Of a DNA stretch of 64,000 nt, positions 6,381 through 47,679 are shown piece after piece. The stretch comes from Streptomyces atroolivaceus (lineage in GTDB: Bacteria > Actinomycetota > Actinomycetes > Streptomycetales > Streptomycetaceae), in contig NZ_JNXG01000008.1 in the NCBI RefSeq assembly GCF_000717025.1, forward strand, positions 195,002 through 259,001. The letters run 5' to 3'. Position numbers and translations under genes: made by a program. Below the pieces are notes generated by a model. That model searched no databases. It was not told the DNA's origin and saw nothing but the letters and a program-made list of their open reading frames with translations. How positions within the stretch are numbered: position 1 is the first letter of the stretch; every line of letters begins with the position of its first letter.

Positions 6381-8150
6381 ATGGCTTCGGTCCCCTCCCT
6401 CGCTTCCACGCTCCAGCAGCAGCTGGCGGACGCCCTGACGGCAGCACTGCCGGAAGCCGGCACCGCGGACCCGCTGCTGCGCCGAAGCGACCGGGCCGAC
6501 TTCCAGGCCAACGGGATCCTCGCGCTCGCCAAGAAGCTCAAGGGCAACCCGCGCGAGCTGGCCTCCAAGGTCACGGCGGCCCTCCCGGCCGGTGACCTGA
6601 TCAAGGACATCGAGGTGTCCGGCCCCGGCTTCCTGAACGTCACGCTGACCGACGGGGCGATCATCCGCACGCTCGCCGCGCGCGCCGCCGACGGCGACCG
6701 GCTCGGCGTCCCGCCGAAGGCCGCCCCCGGCACGACCGTGATCGACTACGCCCAGCCGAACGTGGCCAAGGAGATGCACGTCGGCCACCTGCGGTCGGCG
6801 GTCATCGGTGACGCGATGGTCCAGATCCTCGAATTCACCGGTGAGAACGTCGTCCGGCGCCATCACATCGGCGACTGGGGCACCCAGTTCGGCATGCTCA
6901 TCCAGTACCTCTTCGAGCACCCGGACGAGCTGAAGCACGAAGACGACAAGGCCGACGGCGAGGCGGCGATGTCGTCGCTGAACCGCGTCTACAAGGCGTC
7001 GAGGGTCCTGTTCGACTCCGACGAGGAGTTCAAGGCGCGCTCACGCGACCGGGTGGTGGCCCTCCAGGCCGGAGACCCGGAGACGCTGGCGCACTGGCAG
7101 CGCTTCGTCGACGAGTCGAAGATCTACTTCTACTCGGTCTTCAACAAGCTCGACATGGAGATCGACGACCCCGACATCGTCGGCGAGTCCGGCTACAACG
7201 ACATGCTCGAGGAGACCTGCCGGATCCTGGAGGAGACGGGCGTCGCCGTCCGCTCCGAGGGCGCGCTGTGCGTGTTCTTCGACGACGTGAAGGGCCCGGA
7301 CGGCAACCCGGTCCCGCTGATCGTCAAGAAGACCAACGGCGGCTACGGCTACGCGGCCACCGACCTCTCCGCGATCCGCGACCGGGTGCAGAACCTCAAG
7401 GCCGACACCCTCGTCTACGTCGTGGACGCCCGGCAGTCCCTGCACTTCAAGATGGTCTTCGAGACGGCCCGCCGCGCCGGCTGGCTGAACGAGGACGTCA
7501 AGGCGCACCAGCTGGCCTTCGGCACGGTCCTCGGCAAGGACGGCAAGCCGTTCAAGACCCGTGAGGGCACCACCGTCCGGCTGGAGGACCTCCTCGACGA
7601 GGCGGTCGACCGGGCGACCACCGTGGTCCGGGAGAAGGCCGGGAAGGTGGGCCTGTCCGAGGACGAGATCATCGAGAACGGCCGGTACGTCGGCGTCGGC
7701 GCCGTGAAGTACGCGGACCTGTCGACCTCCGCCGTGCGGGACTACAAGTTCGACCTGGACCAGATGGTGTCGCTGAACGGCGACACCTCGGTCTACCTCC
7801 AGTACGCCTACGCCCGGATCCGGTCCATCCTGCGCAAGGCGGGCGACGCGAAGCCCGCCGCGCACCCGGAGCTGGAGCTGGCCCCGGCCGAGCGCGCGCT
7901 GGGCCTGCACCTGGACCAGTTCGGCGCGGTCCTGGACGAGGTGGCCGAGGGGTACGAGCCGCACAAGCTGGCCGCCTACCTCTACCAGCTCGCCTCGCAC
8001 CTCACCACGTTCTACGACCAGTGCCAGGTGCTGAGCGACGAGAACCCGGCGGAGGTCGTCGAGAACCGGCTGTTCCTCGTCGAGCTCACCGCCCGCACCC
8101 TGCACCAGGGCATGAAGCTGCTCGGCATCAGGACGCCCGAGCGCCTCTGA
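6381..8150 (+). CDS. argS: Arginyl-tRNA synthetase
   Basis: A 589-residue cytosolic class I synthetase that charges tRNA-Arg. It has the N-terminal Add1 domain (about 1-100) and the HIGH motif as HVGH at 133-136 in [12 protein letters not shown]. The [10 protein letters not shown] loop replaces a canonical KMSKS, as is usual in this enzyme. The C-terminus is a DALR anticodon-binding domain ending GIRTPERL. The upstream Shine-Dalgarno is weak. A degenerate copy of its last about 100 bases lies at 9932-10038. Confidence 0.96.
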
Positions 8151-34448: not shown

Positions 34449-34850
34449 TCAGTCCTGCGTGAACGTGCACCACACGAACTTTCCCGGGTCCCGCTCTCCC
34501 ACGCCCCACCGATCGGCGAGCGCGTCGACGAGCAGCAGCCCACGCCCCGACTCCCCCTCCGGCCGCAGCACCGTGGGCACCCCGCCCCCGCTGTCGTGCA
34601 CCTCCACGGACAGCACGCATCCCTCCGCCTCCAGCCTCAGCCGGACCAGATACCCACGCCCCGGCGGCACCCCGTGCAGCAGCGCGTTGGTCGCCAGCTC
34701 ACTCACGCACACCAGCACGTCGTCGAGCCGCGCCCCGAACCCCCAGTCGGTCACGGCCTCGCGGACGAACTCCCGTACCGCAGCGACCGAGCAGCGTTCA
34801 CGCCGGCAGAAGCGCTCGCGGAGCGGCGAGAGTTGCATCGTCTCGTTCAT
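34449..34850 (-). CDS. RsbW-type ATP-binding regulator
   Basis: A 133-residue single HATPase_c domain of the anti-sigma/RsbW kind: N-box CVSELATNALLHG, G1 VHDSGGGVP, G2 GRGLLLVDALADRWG. In Streptomyces such proteins are encoded beside XRE/DUF5753 and DUF397 genes, as here, divergently. They probably act by protein sequestration or Ser-kinase activity. A decayed copy lies at 23010-23113. Confidence 0.9.
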   Translation of the reverse strand: MNETMQLSPLRERFCRRERCSVAAVREFVREAVTDWGFGARLDDVLVCVSELATNALLHGVPPGRGYLVRLRLEAEGCVLSVEVHDSGGGVPTVLRPEGESGRGLLLVDALADRWGVGERDPGKFVWCTFTQD

Positions 34851-34872
34851 GAGACGAGCGTCACCCTGTGTG

Positions 34873-34915
34873 CCTACTGTTCAGCAGTAGGTGAGCACGT
34901 ACAGATCTCTTGTAC
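34873..34915. promoter_or_regulatory. Two palindromes in the HATPase/XRE divergent region
   Basis: CCTACTG-TTCAG-CAGTAGG (34873-34891) and GTACA-GATCTCT-TGTAC (34899-34915). They sit between the two divergent starts (34850 and 34964) and are candidate operators for the XRE protein. Confidence 0.55.
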
Positions 34916-34963
34916 GGGTCGCCGACGTGTGAAGTACGCACCAGGGCGGGGAGGCCGCACCGT

Positions 34964-35788
34964 ATGCACCCCAGGAACCGGCAGCGCAGGAACGCGTCCG
35001 CCATGAAACTCGTCGGCAAGCTGGTCGGCCTGTTCCGCGTCACGGCGGACCTGACCCAGGCCCAGCTCGCGGACCGGGCAGCCGTACAGCTGGAGACGAT
35101 CGCCTCCATCGAACAGGGCCGCCGCGCCCTCCTCCCCGACCTGGCCCGGCGCCTGGACGCACTGCTGGACACGAAGGGGGCGCTGGAGACGGCGGTGGAC
35201 AACATGCCGGAGGTGGATCTGATCCCGGCGTGGGCGGAGCAGTACATGGACCTGGAGCGGGAGGCGCTGGCGCTGTCCTGGTTCGAGAACCAGGTGCTGC
35301 CGGGGCTGCTCCAGACGGAGAGCTACGCGCGGGCGGTGTTCCGTACCGACGTTCCGGCCCTCAATGACGAGGAAGTCGACAGACGGGCCTCCGCGAGAAT
35401 GGGACGTCTGGAAATCCTGCACCAGCAAGAGCCGCCTACCGCAAGTTTCGTCATCTCAGAGGCGATCTTGCGGGATCGCCTCGGCGGGAACGACGTGTAC
35501 GCGGACACCCTCCGGCACGTACGTGATTGCACCGAGATCCCAGGAGTCACCATCCAGATCATGCCGCTGGGCCGATGCACGCACGCGGGCCTCTCAGGTC
35601 CTTTCATCCTTCTGGAGACCCCTGAACACCAGCGCCTCGCCTACACCGAGACCCAGCGCGGCAGCCAGTTGATCTCGGCCCCAGATGACGTGAGCATCCT
35701 GGAACGCAAATATGCGATGCTGCGAACACAGGCCCTCAACACCGAAGAAACTCGGGGCTTGCTGGAACGGCTTCTAGGAGAGCGATGA
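34964..35788 (+). CDS. XRE-family regulator with DUF5753 (Scr1-like)
   Basis: A 274-residue protein. The ATG at 34964 has GGGGAGG 9 nt upstream; the ATG at 35003 (MKLVGK) is the alternative. The HTH is at about 25-75 (LTQAQLADRAAVQLETIASIEQGRR). DUF5753 runs from about 100 to 265 (YMDLEREALALSWFENQVLPGLLQTESYARAVF, IQIMPLGRCTHAGLSGPFILLE). This family works with small DUF397 proteins; here the DUF397 gene overlaps its stop. S. coelicolor relatives affect development and antibiotic production. Confidence 0.92.
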   Translation: MHPRNRQRRNASAMKLVGKLVGLFRVTADLTQAQLADRAAVQLETIASIEQGRRALLPDLARRLDALLDTKGALETAVDNMPEVDLIPAWAEQYMDLEREALALSWFENQVLPGLLQTESYARAVFRTDVPALNDEEVDRRASARMGRLEILHQQEPPTASFVISEAILRDRLGGNDVYADTLRHVRDCTEIPGVTIQIMPLGRCTHAGLSGPFILLETPEHQRLAYTETQRGSQLISAPDDVSILERKYAMLRTQALNTEETRGLLERLLGER

Positions 35789-37303: not shown

Positions 37304-40300
37304 TCACGCCATCGCCTCCGCCAGGTCCTCCGCCTGCTTCAGCACCCGCTCGATCGCCGCGGGCTGCTTGTCCGGCGGATACCCGTGCTTGCGCAGGAGC
37401 CGGAGCACCCGGGCCATGATCCGGTCCCGGGCCTGCTCCTTCAGCTTCCAGTCGACGGTGACGTCCTTGCGGATCTGCTCGTACAGCTCGTGCGCGATCC
37501 GCGCGAGAACCGAGTCCTCCATCTGCTCGACCGCGGAAGGATCGGCGGCCAGGGCGTCATAGAAAGCCAACTCGTCCTCCGTCAGCCCGAGCGTCTCGGC
37601 CCGGCCCCGGTCGGCGGACACCTCCTGTGCCAGCTCGATGAGGAACTTCATGAACTCGGCGGCTGTCAGGAGCCCGTTCGTGTAGCGGTTCATTGCGGCC
37701 CGCACCCGGCTCGTGAAACTCTCCTGCCGCGTCAGGTTGCGCGGGTGGGCGTCCCTGATCTCCTTGAGCAACGCTCGCCGCAGCGCCTCGATGGCCAGGT
37801 TCGGATGCTTGGACGCCTGGAGCTTCCGCAGGAGTGACTCGTCCAGATGGGACAGGTCCGGTTTGGTCAGGCCGGCGGCGTCGTAGATGTCCACGACACC
37901 ATCGGCTGCGATGACCGACGCGTGGAGCTGCGCGATGAGCGGCTCCACGTCCGCCGCTGTGGCCGTGTCCTGCTCCTGCCGCTCGTCGGCCGTGTACTTC
38001 TCCCGCGACTTCCGCACGGACTCGAAAAACCGGATGTCGGGCAGCAGGTCCTGTACGCGCTGATCGGTCGGGCAGAGAGAGAAAGCCTGGCGGAGCAGCC
38101 CTGAGTGATACATGAACCGCTGCTTGCGAGTGGCCTGTTCGAACTCCAGCCCCGGCTCCGGCGCGATCAGAAACTCCAGGACCTCGACCAGTGCCTCCCG
38201 GTAGGAGCGCGGGTCGCCGACCGCGAGCGTCTGCTTCCACCGGCACCCGTGCAGGATGTCCACGATCTGCTGGTGACTCTCCCTGACGAGCTGAACCGCG
38301 CCTGCGAGGTCGGCACCCAGCATGGGGTCCGCCTGGTCCTGCTCGGAGTACTCGGCGAGGGCTTCCTTGATCTCCCGTATGACCCCCTGGAAGTCGACGA
38401 CCAGCCCGGAGGGCTTGCCGGGCCAGGTGCGGTTGACGCGGGCGATGGCCTGCATGAGCGCGGCCCCGCGCATACGTTTGTCCAGGTAGAGGGTGTGCAG
38501 CGGCGGCGCGTCGAAACCGGTCAGCCAGAGGGACTGGACGATCACCAGTTCCAGCTCGTCCTCCGGGTCGGTCACCCGTTCCTGGATCTTCTTCAGCTGG
38601 GTGGGCGTGCGGATGTAGTCGGCAACCTCTGCGGTGTCCGTGGCGGCGTTCCCGGTGAAGACGACCCGGATACGCCCCGTGGTGTCAGTCAGCAGCTGCG
38701 ACTTCGGGTCGCGCTCGCCCTTCCAGTCGGGCCTACGGCGGATCACTTCCTCGAACAGCCGCGCGGCGATGGCTCGGGAGGCACAGACGACCATGCCCTT
38801 GCCCTTCCAGCCCGTCAGTTTCTCCATCTCCGTGCTGCGCGCATCCCAGTGCGCCAGCAGGCCCCCGGCCAGCTCACGGATTCGGGCGGGCGACCCGATC
38901 AATTCCTCGTACCGCCCGAACCGCTGCCGGGCGGTGCGCTTCTCGTCCTCGCTCAGCCCTTCGATCAGGCCTTCCGCGCGGGCGTCCAGATCATCAAGGT
39001 CCGCGTCCCTGATGAGGTCGACCTGGACGAGGTGAGGCTCGTAGAAGACGGGAACGGTCGCCCCGTCGTCCACGGCCTGTGTGAGGTCGTAGGTATGGAT
39101 GTTCCCGCCGAAGACGCCCTGGGTGCTGCCCGTGTGATTGTTGATGGGCGTGCCGGTGAAGGCGATGAAGGTGGCGTTCGGGAGGGCGTCGCGCAGGTTG
39201 CGGGCGTAGCCGTCGATGAAGTCGTAGTGGCTGCGGTGCGCCTCGTCGACGACGACGATCACATCGCGGCGCGGCGAGATCTGCGGATGCCGGACGCCTG
39301 CCCTGCGCTCGGCCTCGGTCAGCCGGAACTTCTGCAGGGTGGCGAAGACGACCCCGCCGTTGCTCTTCGGCCTGTCCAACAGCTCACGCAGCCGCCCCGC
39401 GTCATCGGCTGTCTCCAGCTCTTCCTTGATCCTCTTACGCAGGGTGTCACTGGCGGCGAACGTCCGGTACAGCTGGTCGTCGAGGTCGATCCGGTCCGTC
39501 AGCATGAGGAAGGTCGGGCTGGACAGCTCGGGCGTCGAGGCCGCCTTCCCCACGTAGAAGAGCATTTCCTCGCTCTTCCCCGCCCCTTGCGTGTGCCAGA
39601 CGACCCCCGCCCGGCCGTCGGTCGCAAGAGCCGACTCGGTCGCCCGGACAGCCTTGTTCACGGCGATGTACTGGTGCGCCTTGGCCAGCTTGACCGTGTT
39701 GACGTCGCCGGACTTCTCGGAGGAGTAGGAGAGGAAGTGCGCAATCAGGTCCAGGAGACGGCCCGGCTCGAACGCCCCGTACAGCATGCGCTCCAGAGCC
39801 CTCCCGTCCTCGCGCTGTTGCTTGCGCAGCATGCGGTCCTGGTCGTCGGCGTGCCAGGGGGCCATGTGCTGCCAGGGCGTGAACGGCGTGCCCATCCGGG
39901 CGGTGATCCCGTCGGAAGCGAGCATGACGAGGAACGTCGCGAAGGTGCCGGTCTGCTTCAGCTCGCGCCGGTAGCCCTGGAGCTGGTCGTAGGCGGTGCG
40001 GGCGCTGTCGTTGCTGTCGGCCTTCTTCAGCTCGACGACGGCGAGTGGCAGCCCGTTCACGTACAGGACGATGTCGAATATGAACGTCCGGTCCTTGACG
40101 CTCTTGACCCGTACCTGGCTGACAGCCAGCAGTTCATTGGCATGCGGGTCGCCGAAGTCGACGGGCCGGATCCTGACGTGCCGCGTATCCCCGGTGACGG
40201 GGTCGTCGTAGGGGACGGAGACGCCACCGGTCAGCCGGTCGTAGAACCGGTGGTTCTCGCGCAGATCGTGCTGGGTGAGCTGGGTGAGGAGCAGGGGTAT

Positions 40301-40537
40301 GACGTCGTCGGCCACGCTCTCGGGCAGCTGGGGATATCGGCGCCGGATGGCCTTACGGAGGTTCGGGTACAGGACGAGGTCCCCCCACCCTTTCCTCACC
40401 CCGTACGCGGGCCCGACCTCGGCCCCGGGCACGTGCTGCCACCCGATCTCACCGAGAATGCCGAGGGCGTGCAGCTCCAGCTCGTTCTCGGTGAGCCGGG
40501 CGGTGGGGGGCTCGCCGGCGGGGTGGGTGCTTGTCAT
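37304..40537 (-). CDS. hsdR: Type I restriction enzyme, endonuclease/translocase subunit HsdR
   Basis: A 1077-residue motor-nuclease. The N-terminal HSDR_N nuclease has D155 and E169-x-K171 (VVELKK), the PD-(D/E)xK residues. The SF2 translocase has Walker A QGAGKS at 317-322, DEAH at 431-434, and helicase motif III-like FIAFTGTP. The C-terminal helical part binds HsdM. It cuts unmethylated DNA after ATP-driven translocation. It is the last gene of the operon and overlaps hsdS by 4 nt (ATGA). Full length, no frameshift seen. Confidence 0.96.
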   Translation of the reverse strand: MTSTHPAGEPPTARLTENELELHALGILGEIGWQHVPGAEVGPAYGVRKGWGDLVLYPNLRKAIRRRYPQLPESVADDVIPLLLTQLTQHDLRENHRFYDRLTGGVSVPYDDPVTGDTRHVRIRPVDFGDPHANELLAVSQVRVKSVKDRTFIFDIVLYVNGLPLAVVELKKADSNDSARTAYDQLQGYRRELKQTGTFATFLVMLASDGITARMGTPFTPWQHMAPWHADDQDRMLRKQQREDGRALERMLYGAFEPGRLLDLIAHFLSYSSEKSGDVNTVKLAKAHQYIAVNKAVRATESALATDGRAGVVWHTQGAGKSEEMLFYVGKAASTPELSSPTFLMLTDRIDLDDQLYRTFAASDTLRKRIKEELETADDAGRLRELLDRPKSNGGVVFATLQKFRLTEAERRAGVRHPQISPRRDVIVVVDEAHRSHYDFIDGYARNLRDALPNATFIAFTGTPINNHTGSTQGVFGGNIHTYDLTQAVDDGATVPVFYEPHLVQVDLIRDADLDDLDARAEGLIEGLSEDEKRTARQRFGRYEELIGSPARIRELAGGLLAHWDARSTEMEKLTGWKGKGMVVCASRAIAARLFEEVIRRRPDWKGERDPKSQLLTDTTGRIRVVFTGNAATDTAEVADYIRTPTQLKKIQERVTDPEDELELVIVQSLWLTGFDAPPLHTLYLDKRMRGAALMQAIARVNRTWPGKPSGLVVDFQGVIREIKEALAEYSEQDQADPMLGADLAGAVQLVRESHQQIVDILHGCRWKQTLAVGDPRSYREALVEVLEFLIAPEPGLEFEQATRKQRFMYHSGLLRQAFSLCPTDQRVQDLLPDIRFFESVRKSREKYTADERQEQDTATAADVEPLIAQLHASVIAADGVVDIYDAAGLTKPDLSHLDESLLRKLQASKHPNLAIEALRRALLKEIRDAHPRNLTRQESFTSRVRAAMNRYTNGLLTAAEFMKFLIELAQEVSADRGRAETLGLTEDELAFYDALAADPSAVEQMEDSVLARIAHELYEQIRKDVTVDWKLKEQARDRIMARVLRLLRKHGYPPDKQPAAIERVLKQAEDLAEAMA

Positions 40538-41729
40538 ACGGCCTCCTCTACGACACGGGTGGCGTCCTTGACGCGGAGCTTGCCGGTGATGAGCTGAGGG
40601 AGCAGGGTGTCGCGGAGGTCGGCGAGGGTGCGGTTCTCGTCGGCGGTCTGCATCACGGTGGTGTGCAATGCGTCAAGCTTCTCGGAGAGCCGCTCACGCT
40701 CACCCGCAGCAGGCAAGCTGATTCGCCAGCCGGGCATTTCCTTGAGCGGAAGCCGATCCACGGTGGCTCCGTGAATCGTGCGCCGCTTGATTTCCTCCTG
40801 AAATGCAGGCGCCAGATAGGCGTGCAGCAGCAGCGACCCGCTCACTGCTGCTGACTTGCTGCGCAAAAGCGCCATACGGCGCCCGAGGCTGCCGCGCACC
40901 CCTGGCGGCATGAGTGCGGCATCACCGAGGCGCGTCTCGTAGGAGAAGAGCACATCTCCTCCCTGAGGCTGCACGCGACGCGTCCACCGAGGAAAATCCT
41001 CTTCGGAGAGGTGCGCCGATTCCACCAAATCCAGATAGCCGCTCTTGAGGCTGCTAATGCTGAGGAACCATGGCCCGGTTGGTGTCTTGTGGGGAGTGGC
41101 ATGCGGACCGTCGAAGAGCTCCGCCAAGTCACCGAGCACCTCGGGCTCGTTGCCGATTCCCACCGACTCGTAGCAAGCACCGGCGAGGCTCAACGCTGTT
41201 TGGCGGATCCGCTCGTTGAGCGCGATCTTGTCGTCCAGCGCACCGAGCACCTCGGCGATGGCTTGCTGCTCACTTAGCACTGGAACGCGGATGGGCCATT
41301 TCGGTAGGTCCACGAGCGGGATTCGGTCGACTGTGGCTCCATGGATCGCACGCTCAGCAATTACTCGCTGAAACTCGGGACCCATATAGGCATAGAGGAG
41401 GAACTCTGGTTTGACCATATTCCGTTTAGGCCGAAGTAGCCCCATACGCCTGCCCAAGCACGCTTTCACACCTGCAGGCATGAGCGCAGCGTCCCCTAGC
41501 CGGGTCTCGTACGAGAACAGCACGTCACCCGCCTGCGGCGTGACTCTGGTGGTCCATCGCCCATAGTCAGCCTCGGACAAGTGAGCCGACTCTCCGAGAA
41601 CCAGGCGCCCCCCGACCAAACTGGAGATGCTCAAGAACCAAGGACCTACCTCCGTCTTGGACGGCGTCGCGTGCGGTCCATCAAAGACCTGAGCTACATC
41701 ATTGATGGTCAGCTCCAGCCACTCCCCCA

Positions 41730-41733
<4 letters not shown>
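40534..41733 (-). CDS. hsdS: Type I specificity subunit HsdS with two near-identical half domains
   Basis: A 399-residue protein. The start is GTG 41733 or ATG 41730; both overlap or abut the hsdM stop, with GGGGAGG upstream. TRD1 (about 10-145) and TRD2 (about 200-335) share FDGPHATP, GPWFLSISSL, ESAHLSE, GDVLFSYETRLGDAALMP, LGRRM and IHGATVDR at an exact offset of 190 residues without indels. Each is followed by a spacer helix. Normally the two TRDs differ and read an asymmetric bipartite site. Here both should read the same half-site, so a palindromic bipartite target is expected. The third codon positions are less GC-rich than in neighbouring genes. Confidence 0.94.
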
Positions 41734-43340
<1,607 letters not shown>

Positions 43341-43377
43341 GGGGCACTCGTTTCTCTCGTGGTTCACAAAGGGTGTG

Positions 43378-45510
43378 TCAGACCCGGGAGCCCGGATCGG
43401 AGCGCTTGCGCAGTCGCAGATCTCCGTCCGCGACGCCTGCCGCCAGCCGTTCGGCCAGTGTGTCCAGCGCCGACAACTGGCGGCGTACGTCGGCACGGTG
43501 ACGTTCGGTCTCTGCCAGAACGGCTTCGAGATCGGCGATCTCCTCAGCCGGCAGGTGCGGCAGGTCCATGTCCTTCACGCTCACCCGCCGCACGAGCGAT
43601 CCGCTGCCCCGCTGCTGGTTACGGGGCGCGGCCAGCAGGCGGGCCAGTGCATGAGGGCGCATCCACAGACTCTCCGGACGAGCCGTCCGCCCCTCCGCCA
43701 GGTCGGTCAGGTACTTCCGGTAAGCCGTAATCCGCAGCCCCTGCACCGGCGTCAGCAGGACGCAGCCGCCCGCGTCGTCCACCTGTGTGCGGACACCGTG
43801 TTCCGTGAGCAGGAAGACATCACCCTGCTCGGTCATCAGGCTCTGCGGGTAGGCGGCGAGGTCCTCCAGCATGATGCGCCGCTCCCCGATCGGCAGAGCG
43901 CCCAGCATCTCTTCCCGGCCGATCACCGGGACACCCGCGTCACCGATGTCGCTCTCCCTGATGCGGTGGCCGGGCAGGAGTCTGAGCTGTCCTGCCCTCA
44001 GCTGCCCACCGACTTTGAAGTGCCCGGCACGGTCCTCCTTCCTGCCGACGCCGAGATCGCCGATCCACTGCTTCAGATGGGGCAGGGCCACATAGGCGTT
44101 CTGACGCGCCTCCACCGTCGCCGCGAAATGATCGAGTCCCTTCTCCGGCGCTGCAAGCCGGTGTGCAGGCAGAAGGGACCGCCCGTCCAGCAGGTACGAA
44201 CTGCCGGGCCCGGCACCGGCCACCGGCACACGCTGGGCCTCCTGCGGCACCGGTGTACCGGCATTGCTCAACAACGCCACGACGGTCTGCTGCCATGCGT
44301 CACCCACCCGGCGTGCCAGACGGTCGGCGTCGATCAGCAGCACACGGGAGTCCGCCAACGGTGGCTGGGTTCCCCTCAGCACCAACAAGGCGTGCTCAGC
44401 GCCGGTGCGGAAGGTGTGAATGCGACGAGGCAGCTGGACGATCGCTTCCACAGCGCCGGATTTCAGTAGGTCTTCGCGCATCCGGGTATTGGCCGTACCC
44501 GTCGCACCACGGGGCCGCGAGAGCGTCCAGGATGGAACGACCACCAACCCCTTGCCCCCTTCCCTGAGGCGCCCAAGCGTCTCCACCGCCCACCGCAGCG
44601 GGCCTTCCTCGTCCCGTTCGCGCTCCCCGGAGGCGTAGGGCGGATCGGCCACCACAAGGTCGGCCTGTGGAAATCCCTGTGGCACCGGTTCCAGGTCCGG
44701 CTCCGTGAACGGATCGAAGGGCAGCCGGTACTCGTCGAGCTCCCCGGGATCCGAACACACGAAAGTCTCCCCGGCTGCCCAGTGCGCGAGCAGCCGGTAT
44801 CTCAGCACCGTGCGCCGCAACGCATCCGGCTCCACGGCCGCGACGCGGTTCTCTCCGTCCTCGGCGGCGAGCTCCAGCAGCACATCCCCTGTACCGGCGC
44901 ACAGGTTGAGCATCGTCACAGGCCCTGCCGTCGACAGGACGGGCTGGGCCAAGGCGTCGATCAGTTCGACGACGGGCCGGGGGGTCATGTCCATCGTGAG
45001 ATCGGACTCCAGGCGCCCGGCCAGTCGAAGCACGGCCTCGGCAGCAGCCCCCGTGCCCCCCAGATCCGCGATCAATCCGTGCACGGTACGGAGCAACTCC
45101 GCATCGGCGGCGTCGAAGTCGGCCAGCAGGCCGGCAGGCAGGCTGTCTTCGCTACTGCCTCCGCCTTCCCCCTCCATAGCAGCGACAGCCAGCGCCCGGA
45201 CGATCAGCTCGTCCGCGCCCAGCGTCCCGTGCCCGAGCGTCACCAACCGCCGTAGCCGGAGTCCCTCACGGAATCGCTCTCCGTACGTCGGCAGCGTGCC
45301 GTCCGGGTGCCGTTCGCCGTCGGGCACGGCCCGCTCGTCCAGCCAGCCCGCGATCTCCTCCGCGTCGAACAACGGCTTGCTCTCGGAGCCACCGACCGCC
45401 TCGGGAAAGGAGGCGTGCCGGCGCCGCCAGTTGCTGACCGTGGGCCGGCCCACCTCGGCGAGCTCCTTGATCTCGCCGAGGGTCACCGGTTCGTACCGCC
45501 GCTCCGTCAC
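43378..45510 (-). CDS. HTH-N6 adenine methyltransferase-specificity fusion
   Basis: A 710-residue protein starting at GTG 45510, overlapping the Abi gene stop by 4 nt. Residues 1-60 form a MerR/AlpA-like helix-turn-helix (TLGEIKELAEVGRPTVSNWRRR). The methyltransferase (about 165-400) has motif I LNLCAGTGD (201-209) and motif IV DPPY (289-292). Residues about 470-700 resemble an HsdS half: a target-recognition-like block (GQLRLLPGHRIRESDIGDAGVPVIG) and a coiled C-terminus (DLEAVLAETERHRADVRRQLSALDTLAERLA). No nuclease domain is seen. It could be a second methyltransferase of the system, a modification-dependent controller, or part of a Type IIG/I hybrid. Confidence 0.82.
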   Translation of the reverse strand: MTERRYEPVTLGEIKELAEVGRPTVSNWRRRHASFPEAVGGSESKPLFDAEEIAGWLDERAVPDGERHPDGTLPTYGERFREGLRLRRLVTLGHGTLGADELIVRALAVAAMEGEGGGSSEDSLPAGLLADFDAADAELLRTVHGLIADLGGTGAAAEAVLRLAGRLESDLTMDMTPRPVVELIDALAQPVLSTAGPVTMLNLCAGTGDVLLELAAEDGENRVAAVEPDALRRTVLRYRLLAHWAAGETFVCSDPGELDEYRLPFDPFTEPDLEPVPQGFPQADLVVADPPYASGERERDEEGPLRWAVETLGRLREGGKGLVVVPSWTLSRPRGATGTANTRMREDLLKSGAVEAIVQLPRRIHTFRTGAEHALLVLRGTQPPLADSRVLLIDADRLARRVGDAWQQTVVALLSNAGTPVPQEAQRVPVAGAGPGSSYLLDGRSLLPAHRLAAPEKGLDHFAATVEARQNAYVALPHLKQWIGDLGVGRKEDRAGHFKVGGQLRAGQLRLLPGHRIRESDIGDAGVPVIGREEMLGALPIGERRIMLEDLAAYPQSLMTEQGDVFLLTEHGVRTQVDDAGGCVLLTPVQGLRITAYRKYLTDLAEGRTARPESLWMRPHALARLLAAPRNQQRGSGSLVRRVSVKDMDLPHLPAEEIADLEAVLAETERHRADVRRQLSALDTLAERLAAGVADGDLRLRKRSDPGSRV

Positions 45511-46178
45511 AGCACAATCTCCTCCTCGCCCGAAAGAACCCGGGCCCTGCGGGCCAGGACCGCAGGGACCTGGCTGTACTTCTCGTGGCGGGCAGCCAGA
45601 GCGGGAGCGACCAGCGCAGTTAGCTCTACGGCCGTCCTGAAGTCCTCGTCCAGCCGACGGTGGTAGATGCGCTCGTGGTGAGCGACGCGGTTACGCAGGG
45701 TCCGCATGACCTCCAGCTGCTTGTGGAGGTCAGTACGGCGCACTCCCTTGAAACAGTGCCGCAGCGCCGGGTACCAGTACTTCATGTCGTAGTTTCCATG
45801 GCCGCCCGTGCTGACCAGGCCGACCCAGAAGCCGAACGACAAAGTGGCGACGACATCGCACGGCGCAGTGCCGTTCCCCCGCCGCCTCAGCTTGTCCTCG
45901 GCATCACGGATGTCCTCCATCGCCCAGCGGTTCGGCTGCGCGCGCGGCAGGTTCCACCAGTCACTCCGGCCGAACTTTCCGGTGAGCTGCCGGTGGATCC
46001 TGTTGCGTAGGCTCACCTCCAGGTCACGCAGTGGGCTGTGCAGAGCCCGGGCCGCCTCCGCGTCCCAGGCATAGAGCCGCAGCGCCACCACCACGTCACC
46101 GCGGCACTCGTCCAGGAACGGCTGGAACCGCTCCGGAGAGATGGCCTGGACTAACTGCTCCTCGCCACTGTTCGTCAT
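45507..46178 (-). CDS. Abi_2-family (AbiD/F-like) HEPN protein
   Basis: A 223-residue protein starting at ATG 46178. It matches the Abi_2 family: WDAEAARALHSPLRDLEVSLRNRIHRQL near residues 40-65, and the HEPN catalytic motif R-x4-H as RNRVAH in LEVMRTLRNRVAHHERIY (about 155-165). HEPN Abi proteins are RNases that halt growth on phage infection. As the first gene of the operon, with stop-start overlap to the HTH-methyltransferase gene, it is produced together with the restriction system. Confidence 0.88.
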   Translation of the reverse strand: MTNSGEEQLVQAISPERFQPFLDECRGDVVVALRLYAWDAEAARALHSPLRDLEVSLRNRIHRQLTGKFGRSDWWNLPRAQPNRWAMEDIRDAEDKLRRRGNGTAPCDVVATLSFGFWVGLVSTGGHGNYDMKYWYPALRHCFKGVRRTDLHKQLEVMRTLRNRVAHHERIYHRRLDEDFRTAVELTALVAPALAARHEKYSQVPAVLARRARVLSGEEEIVL

Positions 46179-46292
46179 CGCCTGCACTTCCTTCCGACCG
46201 GTCCCCGTGTTACGGTTCCCGGGTACGCCTTGGAGTCCTGTCACCGCTTGCTTCGCCGCATAGCACACAGCCCAGGGCAGAGCCTGGTGATA

Positions 46293-46463
46293 CGCCCTGT
46301 ACTGCCCACCGCAATTAGGCAGTGCAGGGCGTCACTGTTCCCGCCGTGAGAGTCGAGCTGACGCCCCCTCACTGCGATGAGTTAAACCTAGCGCCTCTCT
46401 TCCCGGATGGGAAGCCTCATTGGTGCGCCACTTGTGAGAAGTGGGGTTCTCACTAATTGCGGT
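46293..46463. promoter_or_regulatory. Hairpins and repeats upstream of the defence operon
   Basis: CGCCCTGTACTGCC (46293-46306) pairs with GGCAGTGCAGGGCG (46318-46331). GTGAGAA (46434-46440) pairs with TTCTCAC (46447-46453). ACCGCAATTAG (46308-46318) recurs inverted as CTAATTGCGGT at 46453-46463. This region is AT-richer than its surroundings. It is the only promoter region available to the five-gene operon. No gene is seen in 46179-46533. Confidence 0.65.
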
Positions 46464-46485
46464 AGGGTTTTTTATGTCATGAAAA

Positions 46486-46511
46486 GCGGGCCACGACCTG
46501 TCGTGACCCGC
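46486..46511 (-). terminator. Terminator of hemB
   Basis: A 12-bp stem, GCGGGCCACGAC/GTCGTGACCCGC (one mismatch), with a CT loop. Read on the minus strand it ends in TTTTC. It lies 22 nt after the hemB stop. Confidence 0.85.
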
Positions 46512-46533
46512 CTCCAAGACTCTGCGCAGGGCC

Positions 46534-47529
46534 TCAGCGCCGCAGCTTCTGCGCAACCTCCGTCGCCCAGTAAGTCAGGATCATCCGCGCACCCGCGCGC
46601 CGGATCCCCGTCAGGCTCTCCAGGATCGCCGCGTCCCGGTCGATCCAGCCCTTCTCCGCAGCCGCCTCGATCATCGCGTACTCACCGCTGATCTGGTACG
46701 CCGCGACCGGCACGTCCACCGCGTCGGCGACCTTGGCGAGGATGTCCAGGTACGGGCCGGCCGGCTTGACCATGACCATGTCGGCGCCCTCCTCCAGGTC
46801 CAGCGCCAGCTCACGCAGCGACTCGCGGATGTTCGCCGGGTCCTGCTGGTACGTCTTGCGGTCGCCCTTCAGCGAAGAGCCCACCGCCTCCCGGAACGGG
46901 CCGTAGAAGGCCGAGGAGTACTTCGCGGTGTACGCGAGGATCGACACGTCCTCATGACCCGTCTGGTCCAGCGCGTCACGGATCACACCGACCTGGCCGT
47001 CCATCATGCCGCTGGGGCCCACCACATGGGCGCCCGCGTCGGCCTGGACCTGGGCCATCTCGGCGTACCGCTCCAGCGTGGCGTCGTTGTCGACGCGGCC
47101 GTCCTCGGTCAGCACCCCGCAGTGGCCGTGGTCGGTGTACTCGTCCAGACAGAGGTCGGACATGATCACGAGGTCGTCCCCGACCTCTTCCCGCACCGCC
47201 CGCAGGCCGACCTGGAGAATGCCCTCCGGATCGGTACCCGCCGTGCCCCGCCCGTCCTTCTTCTCGTCCAGCGGGACGCCGAAGAGCATGATCCCCGAGA
47301 CACCGGCCGTGACCGCGTCGACGGCGGCCTTCCGCAGCGTGTCCACGGTGTGCTGCCGCACGCCCGGCATGGCTGAGATGGCGACCGGGGCGTCGATGCC
47401 CTCGCGTACGAACGCGGGCAGGATCAGGTTCGCCGGGTCGAGCCGGGTCTCGGCGACCATGCGCCGCATGACGGGGGTCGTCCGCAGCCGGCGGGGCCGC
47501 GAGCCGGGGAAGTTTCCGTAATCGGTCAT
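46534..47529 (-). CDS. hemB: Porphobilinogen synthase (ALA dehydratase)
   Basis: A 331-residue enzyme condensing two 5-aminolevulinates to porphobilinogen, the second common step of heme and B12 synthesis. Schiff-base lysines are in [17 protein letters not shown] (about 197) and [12 protein letters not shown] (about 252). The metal-site region reads [14 protein letters not shown], with Asp instead of the Cys3 zinc site, which suggests the Mg2+/metal-independent-Zn type. It is the last gene of the hem cluster, after a tRNA-like gene. Confidence 0.96.

Positions 47530-47605: not shown

Positions 47606-47679
<74 letters not shown>

What the first reader, a model, noticed from the sequence alone, without database searches (positions are those of the whole stretch)
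37304..46178. Five-gene operon joining an Abi HEPN RNase, an HTH-methyltransferase fusion and a Type I restriction system
Abi, HTH-MTase, hsdM, hsdS and hsdR run in one direction. All junctions are 4-nt overlaps except one 37-nt gap. Only one promoter region exists, upstream of abi. An abortive-infection RNase and a second, self-specific methyltransferase translationally coupled to a full Type I system suggest a backup design: if restriction fails, or methylation is disturbed, the HEPN protein kills. I do not know this exact arrangement as a described system.
Basis: partly seen in the sequence, partly recalled or inferred. Interest (0 to 1): 0.82.

Follow-up and report, generated by a model that had tools for sequence, protein, structure and literature searches.

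The report
RNA-gated suicide RNase inside restriction operon
In Streptomyces a restriction-modification operon carries, as its first unit, a relative of the RNase that gave rise to Cas13 together with a conserved small RNA that probably keeps it silent, and a methyltransferase that probably controls the shared promoter, which suggests that cells may arrest themselves when their DNA defence is knocked out.

Summary
The five genes exist as described (window 37304-46178, minus strand; three 4-nt overlaps, one 37-nt gap). The association is real: in a 295-genome same-genus sample, all nine close Abi relatives (own included) head the five-gene cassette. Of 13 loci found separately in named Streptomyces genomes (nine new), 12 carry all five; one lacks hsdS and hsdR.

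(1) Directly upstream of abi lies a conserved structured RNA that no Rfam family matches. The Abi model's only clear solved match is AbiF bound to its ncRNA (8vz6), so abi is most likely an AbiF-type HEPN RNase gated by an RNA antitoxin. (2) An 18-bp palindrome, TGAGAAN6TTCTCA, precedes the promoter in 18/18 loci (two differ by one end letter) and occurs once in the 8.2-Mb genome. Sister HTH-methyltransferase/hsd loci without abi carry TGATAAN6TTATCA (16 of 17). So the palindrome goes with the HTH-methyltransferase, a likely operon controller. Its C-terminal region is conserved (71%) while HsdS target domains vary (26-37%).

Best reading: an RNA-antitoxin/HEPN toxin wired into a methyltransferase-controlled Type I system as guard or addiction module. 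Anatomy is strong; mechanism is inferred. HEPN-R-M coupling was proposed in 2013.

The parts
46435..46452 (-). 18-bp palindromic operator TGAGAA-N6-TTCTCA
   Evidence: Upstream of abi in 18 of 18 loci, 16 exact and 2 with one end letter changed; the exact pattern occurs once in the whole own genome; sister operons without abi carry TGATAA-N6-TTATCA
46385..46413 (-). predicted promoter: -35-like TTCCCA 46408-46413, -10-like TAGGTT 46385-46390
   Evidence: Own scoring; not found by the strict consensus scan; no transcript data
46287..46335 (-). H1, strong variable hairpin on the 5' side of the RNA
   Evidence: Fold; hairpins listed there for 22 chosen of 34 loci; weak or unclear in several others
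46196..46286 (-). H2, conserved core of the candidate antitoxin RNA (stems P1-P3 and TAnnC tail)
   Evidence: Covariation in A1; model R1 hits this place at E 3.3e-13 (a training sequence); found directly upstream of abi in 13 of 13 separately fetched loci, nine of them not in the training set
45507..46178 (-). abi: AbiF-type HEPN RNase, 223 aa
43378..45510 (-). htm: N-terminal HTH + N6-adenine methyltransferase + C-terminal region that looks like a target-recognition half-subunit, 710 aa
41730..43340 (-). hsdM, Type I modification subunit
   Evidence: Pfam N6_Mtase + HsdM_N; PADLOC MTase_I
40534..41733 (-). hsdS, Type I specificity subunit; its two halves read as near repeats
   Evidence: Pfam Methylase_S, PADLOC Specificity_I with two or more stretches in most of the listed models; sequence
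37304..40537 (-). hsdR, Type I restriction subunit
   Evidence: Pfam HSDR_N, SWI2_SNF2, T1RH-like_C; TIGR00348 over cut-off

Best explanation
This is an AbiF-type RNA-antitoxin/HEPN-RNase module built into the front of a Type I restriction-modification operon. Order: operator - promoter - structured RNA - abi - HTH-methyltransferase - hsdM - hsdS - hsdR. Shown by sequence comparison: the conserved cassette, the AbiF-like fold and HEPN motif, the conserved RNA just before abi, and a genome-unique palindrome that goes with the HTH-methyltransferase. Inferred: the RNA binds Abi and keeps its RNase silent, as RCd22 and AbiFr do for other AbiF proteins. The HTH-methyltransferase binds the palindrome and sets transcription of RNA, RNase and R-M genes together; the site lies upstream of the predicted -35 at two distances about one helical turn apart, which suggests an activator more than a repressor. 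Because the RNA is unstable and the RNase stable (assumed), loss or blocking of the controller (loss of the cassette, or a phage anti-restriction protein) lowers the RNA first, frees the RNase and stops growth. The module would thus guard, and addict the cell to, the restriction system. The number given is for the whole statement; I put the architecture with an RNA-gated RNase at about 0.85, the controller role at about 0.65 and the guard/addiction logic at about 0.4.
Confidence: 0.5

Rival explanations
1. PrrC-like guard by direct contact: Abi is held inactive by binding the Type I complex or the HTH-methyltransferase, and is released when an anti-restriction protein disrupts them. The RNA is secondary.
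For: PrrC/EcoprrI precedent, HEPN in an hsd operon (PMC3710099 section 10; PMC12707154 passages); abi and htm diverge in step (r = 0.94).
Against: Abi's best structural relative binds an RNA; the RNA is present in all 18 loci; several abi genes with no hsd match in the fetched region still have a candidate RNA, weakly supported by the model in L053-L055, L060 and L063; abi shows no ABC domain as PrrC has.
Confidence: 0.2
2. Addiction and establishment control only: the HTH-methyltransferase times expression as C proteins or M.SsoII do, and RNA-abi is a stabilising toxin-antitoxin passenger. Nothing senses phage anti-restriction.
For: Same operator architecture in sister operons that have no abi, so the control does not need abi; abi genes with no hsd match in the region exist; M.SsoII represses its own gene through an inverted repeat (PMC3978073 passages).
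Against: The joint order is kept while abi falls to 39% pairwise identity, and RNA-abi-HTH-methyltransferase pairing recurs in other genera, which suggests more than a passenger.
Confidence: 0.22
3. The upstream RNA is a cis leader or attenuator that tunes abi expression and is not an antitoxin.
For: It lies in the predicted 5' leader of the operon; RCd22 also lowers abiF expression (PMC12373285 abstract and section 7).
Against: Copies without a detectable abi exist; the AbiF precedent RNA is active in trans (PMC12373285 abstract).
Confidence: 0.12
4. Loose co-location of unrelated defence genes in an island.
For: Defence genes often cluster (general knowledge).
Against: Fixed order, 4-nt overlaps in the window, block mobility and correlated divergence.
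Confidence: 0.03

Closest known systems
AbiF-AbiFr / AbiF-RCd22 RNA toxin-antitoxin (Abi_2/AbiD/F family)
   Same: HEPN protein of the same predicted fold and motif; structured RNA directly upstream of the gene
   Different: RNA not recognised by Rfam RF03085; here the unit heads a Type I R-M operon and shares its promoter with a putative methyltransferase controller
PrrC-EcoprrI (Type Ic R-M with HEPN anticodon nuclease)
   Same: HEPN RNase encoded with hsdMSR
   Different: No ABC NTPase domain found; an RNA partner is present; there is an extra HTH-methyltransferase
M.SsoII-type methyltransferase regulators and C proteins
   Same: Regulatory N-terminal region on a methyltransferase, and an inverted repeat in the promoter region
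   Different: N6-adenine Type I-like enzyme, not C5; Type I operon; palindrome upstream of the predicted -35, whereas M.SsoII competes with RNA polymerase
CreTA / CrePA (CRISPR-guarding toxin-antitoxins)
   Same: Logic: a defence complex controls a toxin-antitoxin module in its own locus
   Different: R-M instead of CRISPR; toxin is an AbiF-like RNase; control by a DNA-binding methyltransferase is only inferred
PARIS
   Same: Proposed trigger: phage anti-restriction proteins (abstract listing of PMC11455837; PMC12707154 passages)
   Different: Different parts (its ATPase sensor and nuclease effector are recalled, not checked here)

Membership tests
[quoted passage not shown]
   30.5 bits against 25.6
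[quoted passage not shown]
AbiF RNA toxin-antitoxin system | conserved structured RNA directly upstream of the abi gene | tested here: met
AbiF RNA toxin-antitoxin system | RNA binds and neutralises the RNase | not testable with these tools
   Needs an experiment
Rfam RF03085 abiF RNA family | match to the covariance model | tested here: not met
   No match at gathering in the window, none at E <= 10 in 46100-46600, none at E <= 5 in 19 loci; so not filed under RF03085
Type I restriction-modification system | hsdM, hsdS and hsdR together | tested here: met
PrrC-type guard | HEPN gene within an hsd operon | tested here: met
PrrC-type guard | ABC NTPase domain fused to HEPN | tested here: not met
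   223-aa protein with only Abi_2 in Pfam and an AbiF match along residues 1-215
methyltransferase-controller (M.SsoII type) | N-terminal HTH on a methyltransferase | tested here: met
   Model helices 11-18 and 22-31; HTH conserved; no Pfam HTH hit
methyltransferase-controller (M.SsoII type) | inverted repeat in its own promoter region | tested here: met
methyltransferase-controller (M.SsoII type) | C5-cytosine methyltransferase domain | tested here: not met
   N6_Mtase; nearest folds are Type I M proteins, CamA and PacII. It may work like M.SsoII but is not one
methyltransferase-controller (M.SsoII type) | binds the repeat and changes transcription | not testable with these tools
   Needs an experiment
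CreTA/CrePA | toxin-antitoxin controlled by a CRISPR effector at a CRISPR-Cas locus | not tested
   No CRISPR search was made

The most novel reading that the evidence does not exclude
A restriction-modification system that guards itself through transcription: an HTH-methyltransferase activates the promoter of an RNA antitoxin that restrains a relative of the Cas13-ancestor RNase, so that any phage protein or event that removes the methyltransferase from its single operator starves the antitoxin and fires the RNase. It would be the R-M counterpart of CreTA/CrePA, and RNA-abi-HTH-methyltransferase without any nuclease would be its minimal form in other Actinomycetes.
Probability: 0.33. Interest if true: 0.87.

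Novelty: new variant of a known kind. Interest (0 to 1): 0.72.

Why it matters
Many HEPN RNases are linked to R-M operons (PMC3710099), and what keeps them silent is described, in what I read, mainly for PrrC. This cassette names concrete parts, namely an RNA, an RNase, an operator and a candidate controller methyltransferase, so the guard hypothesis can be tested with a few constructs. It adds a candidate RNA family to the AbiF group, from which Cas13 is thought to have arisen, in Actinomycetes; the C. difficile AbiF paper describes its family as largely in Bacillota and Pseudomonadota and has no hit for Actinobac or Streptomyces. It also offers a way to wire a toxin-antitoxin to restriction that parallels the CRISPR-guarding modules.

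Tried and rejected
Rfam: no known family explains the RNA. The first palindrome pattern, with N5, was wrong and found nothing; with N6 it is unique. The strict promoter and terminator scan found nothing. An alignment of the 5' hairpins (A5) is not in structural register, so no covariation claim is made for H1. PDB by sequence gave only E 0.11 and 0.3 for abi and one methyltransferase for htm. A PrrC-like reading was weakened by the missing ABC domain and the AbiF match. The idea that the HTH-methyltransferase is only a second self-marking enzyme was weakened by its conserved C-terminal region. Eight paper searches listed no paper that I recognised as this arrangement; most listings were judged by title and abstract start. 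The Cell 2025 AbiF-Cas13 paper was not looked up; Weinberg 2017 is not held.

Dropped rows and limits: of 34 abi loci, 10 distant ones (L053-L055, L057-L063) were left out of alignment A1 and model R1; five of them are hit weakly at the right place (L053, L054, L055, L060, L063; E 0.004-0.8), the other five are not. The 34 RNA anchors were chosen by eye. The genus run of R1 also gave eight hits at E 0.001-0.03; the five that became loci (L114-L118) show no abi, three were not examined. L128 (broken abi) and L126 (no hsdS or hsdR) were left out of the correlations but not of the mean identities. hsdS was not scanned in the 17 sister loci, and only two hsdR candidates per genome were scored, so there may be more. 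In five of 16 sister loci my scoring put the -10 at 50-53 bp instead of 41-43. An HTH pattern in a first form failed and was corrected.
Full report
Observation. The genome is an unnamed 8.2-Mb assembly. I take it as Streptomyces because the near htm relatives in named genomes are all Streptomyces; in the large protein search they are mostly Streptomyces, with some Kitasatospora and Embleya.

Linkage. In the same-genus sample 31 of 295 genomes have an abi relative at E <= 1e-5, 34 loci in all. I fetched the 33 besides the own one. Eight, plus the own, have abi-htm-hsdM-hsdS-hsdR in this order. These eight are the seven relatives of 50% identity or more and one whose abi is broken into two pieces (57% and 46%; the assembly has an N there). 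The htm relatives of 58% or more, own included, fall in the same nine genomes (291 genomes). A separate scan of a named genome collection with an htm alignment gave 13 Streptomyces loci: 13 of 13 have abi and hsdM next to htm, 12 of 13 also hsdS and hsdR. The exception, L126, has a shortened hsdM followed by other genes. They lie in at least four upstream neighbourhoods (clusters of ORFs, some possibly not genes).

Two sub-modules. Over 16 loci, pairwise identities correlate at 0.94 for abi-htm and 0.97 for hsdM-hsdR, at 0.66-0.79 between these two pairs, and at 0.17-0.27 for hsdS with anything. No test was made, and genes that descend together correlate anyway; the contrast between the pairs is what I use. 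Mean identity is 26% and 37% for the two HsdS target domains, but 71% for the C-terminal region of htm and 91% for its HTH. The methyltransferase motifs of htm are kept: A205-G206, G208 and P290-P291 are invariant in 9 of 9, G208 and P290-P291 in 45 of 45. The htm model (mean pLDDT 84) matches Type I M proteins, CamA and PacII. An enzyme of fixed specificity, next to one whose specificity turns over, looks more like a controller or sensor than a second immunity mark. This is inference.

The RNA. The 358 nt between hemB and abi fold better than 100 shuffles (z -3.98). In all 34 abi loci I could pick a related hairpin upstream of the start codon by eye. On a plain MAFFT alignment of 24 of them (A1), a 12-pair structure has 92.4% of cells paired, 6 pairs with two-sided changes and 29 such cells; shuffles gave 11.5 and slid versions 3-15. 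One measure, further pair types, was lower than in every shuffle (7 against 10.6). A covariance model (R1) run over 291 genomes of the genus gave 26 hits at E <= 1.2e-6: the 24 training loci and two without abi (and 13-kb regions). In the nine new htm loci the RNA is present each time at E <= 1.2e-12. In 394 genomes of the class it hit 31 genomes in 19 genera. I fetched all 33 hits outside the own genome: 24 have an abi gene directly downstream, nine do not; at E <= 1e-10 it is 14 of 16, one of them a short remnant. The RNA is therefore a real family that usually, not always, heads abi. No Rfam family matches.

The operator. All 18 loci have TGAGAA-N6-TTCTCA, two of them with one end letter changed, before the promoter. 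The exact pattern occurs once in the own genome. The predicted -10 begins 52-54 bp from the palindrome centre in nine loci and 40-42 bp in the other nine, a difference of about one helical turn; in no top-scoring call does the palindrome overlap the -35. The next-nearest hsdR relatives, 17 loci in 16 genomes at 41-43% identity, all have htm-hsdM-(about 1 kb)-hsdR and no abi match, no RNA hit better than E 0.6, and upstream of htm the palindrome TGATAA-N6-TTATCA or an end variant in 16 of 17, imperfect in one (L188 has a second such palindrome elsewhere). The -10 lies at 41-43 bp in 11 of the 16 scored. One letter per half-site differs between the two groups of HTH-methyltransferases. This ties the palindrome to the HTH-methyltransferase and not to abi. 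Promoter positions are my own scoring, not measured.

Simpler and other forms. Twelve more distant loci in the genus have RNA-abi-methyltransferase without any hsdR match in the fetched region; the HTH is readable in 11 of 12, and a short S-like gene was found in seven (Pfam Methylase_S confirmed for one). In the class set, 11 loci have abi followed by a methyltransferase; an N-terminal HTH is readable in 10. A perfect inverted repeat of 7 bp or more lies 60-230 nt upstream of the RNA in 9 of 11, against 1.0 expected in letter shuffles (some may be RNA stems); five are GCGCACT-NN-AGTGCGC. So RNA-abi-HTH-methyltransferase is the recurrent core, and restriction is one way to extend it.

Mechanism. 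The most likely working is that the RNA restrains Abi, and that htm, acting at the palindrome, sets transcription of RNA, RNase and R-M genes. If htm is lost or blocked, the RNA decays first, the RNase is freed and growth stops. Whether htm activates or represses is open; a position upstream of the -35 and poor -35 boxes in the sister loci favour activation, while the precedent M.SsoII, a methyltransferase with a regulatory N-terminal region that binds an inverted repeat, represses its own gene (PMC3978073, passages). Precedents for guarding of R-M are PrrC and PARIS (PMC12707154, passages), and for a toxin-antitoxin guarding a defence locus CreTA/CrePA (PMC12737573, passages).

Novelty. The link of Abi2/AbiF HEPN proteins to R-M operons and the multi-pronged defence idea are in print since 2013 (PMC3710099, section 10; table text and passages). 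My searches listed no paper that I recognised as having this gene order, this RNA or a methyltransferase operator in front of an AbiF unit; subscription papers were mostly not covered. I therefore call it a new variant of a known kind.

Noticed in passing
L219, L220, L222, L223, L226, L227, L228, L231, L233, L238, L239: Copies of the RNA motif with no abi gene detectable downstream: possible orphan antitoxin RNAs.
   Followed up: partly
L239 around 6476-6650 (L113 around 1500-1620): Two tandem copies of the RNA motif with no abi nearby, reminiscent of the two abiF motifs of RCd22.
   Followed up: no
L188-L204: A sister family of Type I operons, HTH-methyltransferase-hsdM-(hsdS region)-hsdR without abi, with a TGATAA-N6-TTATCA palindrome and a promoter with a poor -35: a candidate controller system for Type I R-M in its own right.
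   Followed up: partly
L039, L041-L046, L048-L051: RNA-abi-methyltransferase units without hsdR sit upstream of the same gene (MKSPLL... protein) in 11 of 11 looked at; several have the palindrome GCAGTGCACTGC next to the predicted -35.
   Followed up: partly
window 40534-41733: The two halves of HsdS are near repeats (FDGPHATP.KT..GPWFLSISSL in both), which predicts a palindromic two-part target.
   Followed up: no
L126 13771-15312: A natural cassette that keeps operator, RNA, abi and htm but has lost the end of hsdM, hsdS and hsdR; an ORF with a Walker A-like motif follows.
   Followed up: partly
window 34449-35788: A small ORF on the minus strand (34449-34850, no family scanned) next to an HTH-DUF5753 regulator (34910-35788).
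   Followed up: no
window 47606-47678: A tRNA match on the minus strand (Rfam, 42 bits) on the far side of the hemB-like gene (46534-47529) from the cassette.
   Followed up: no
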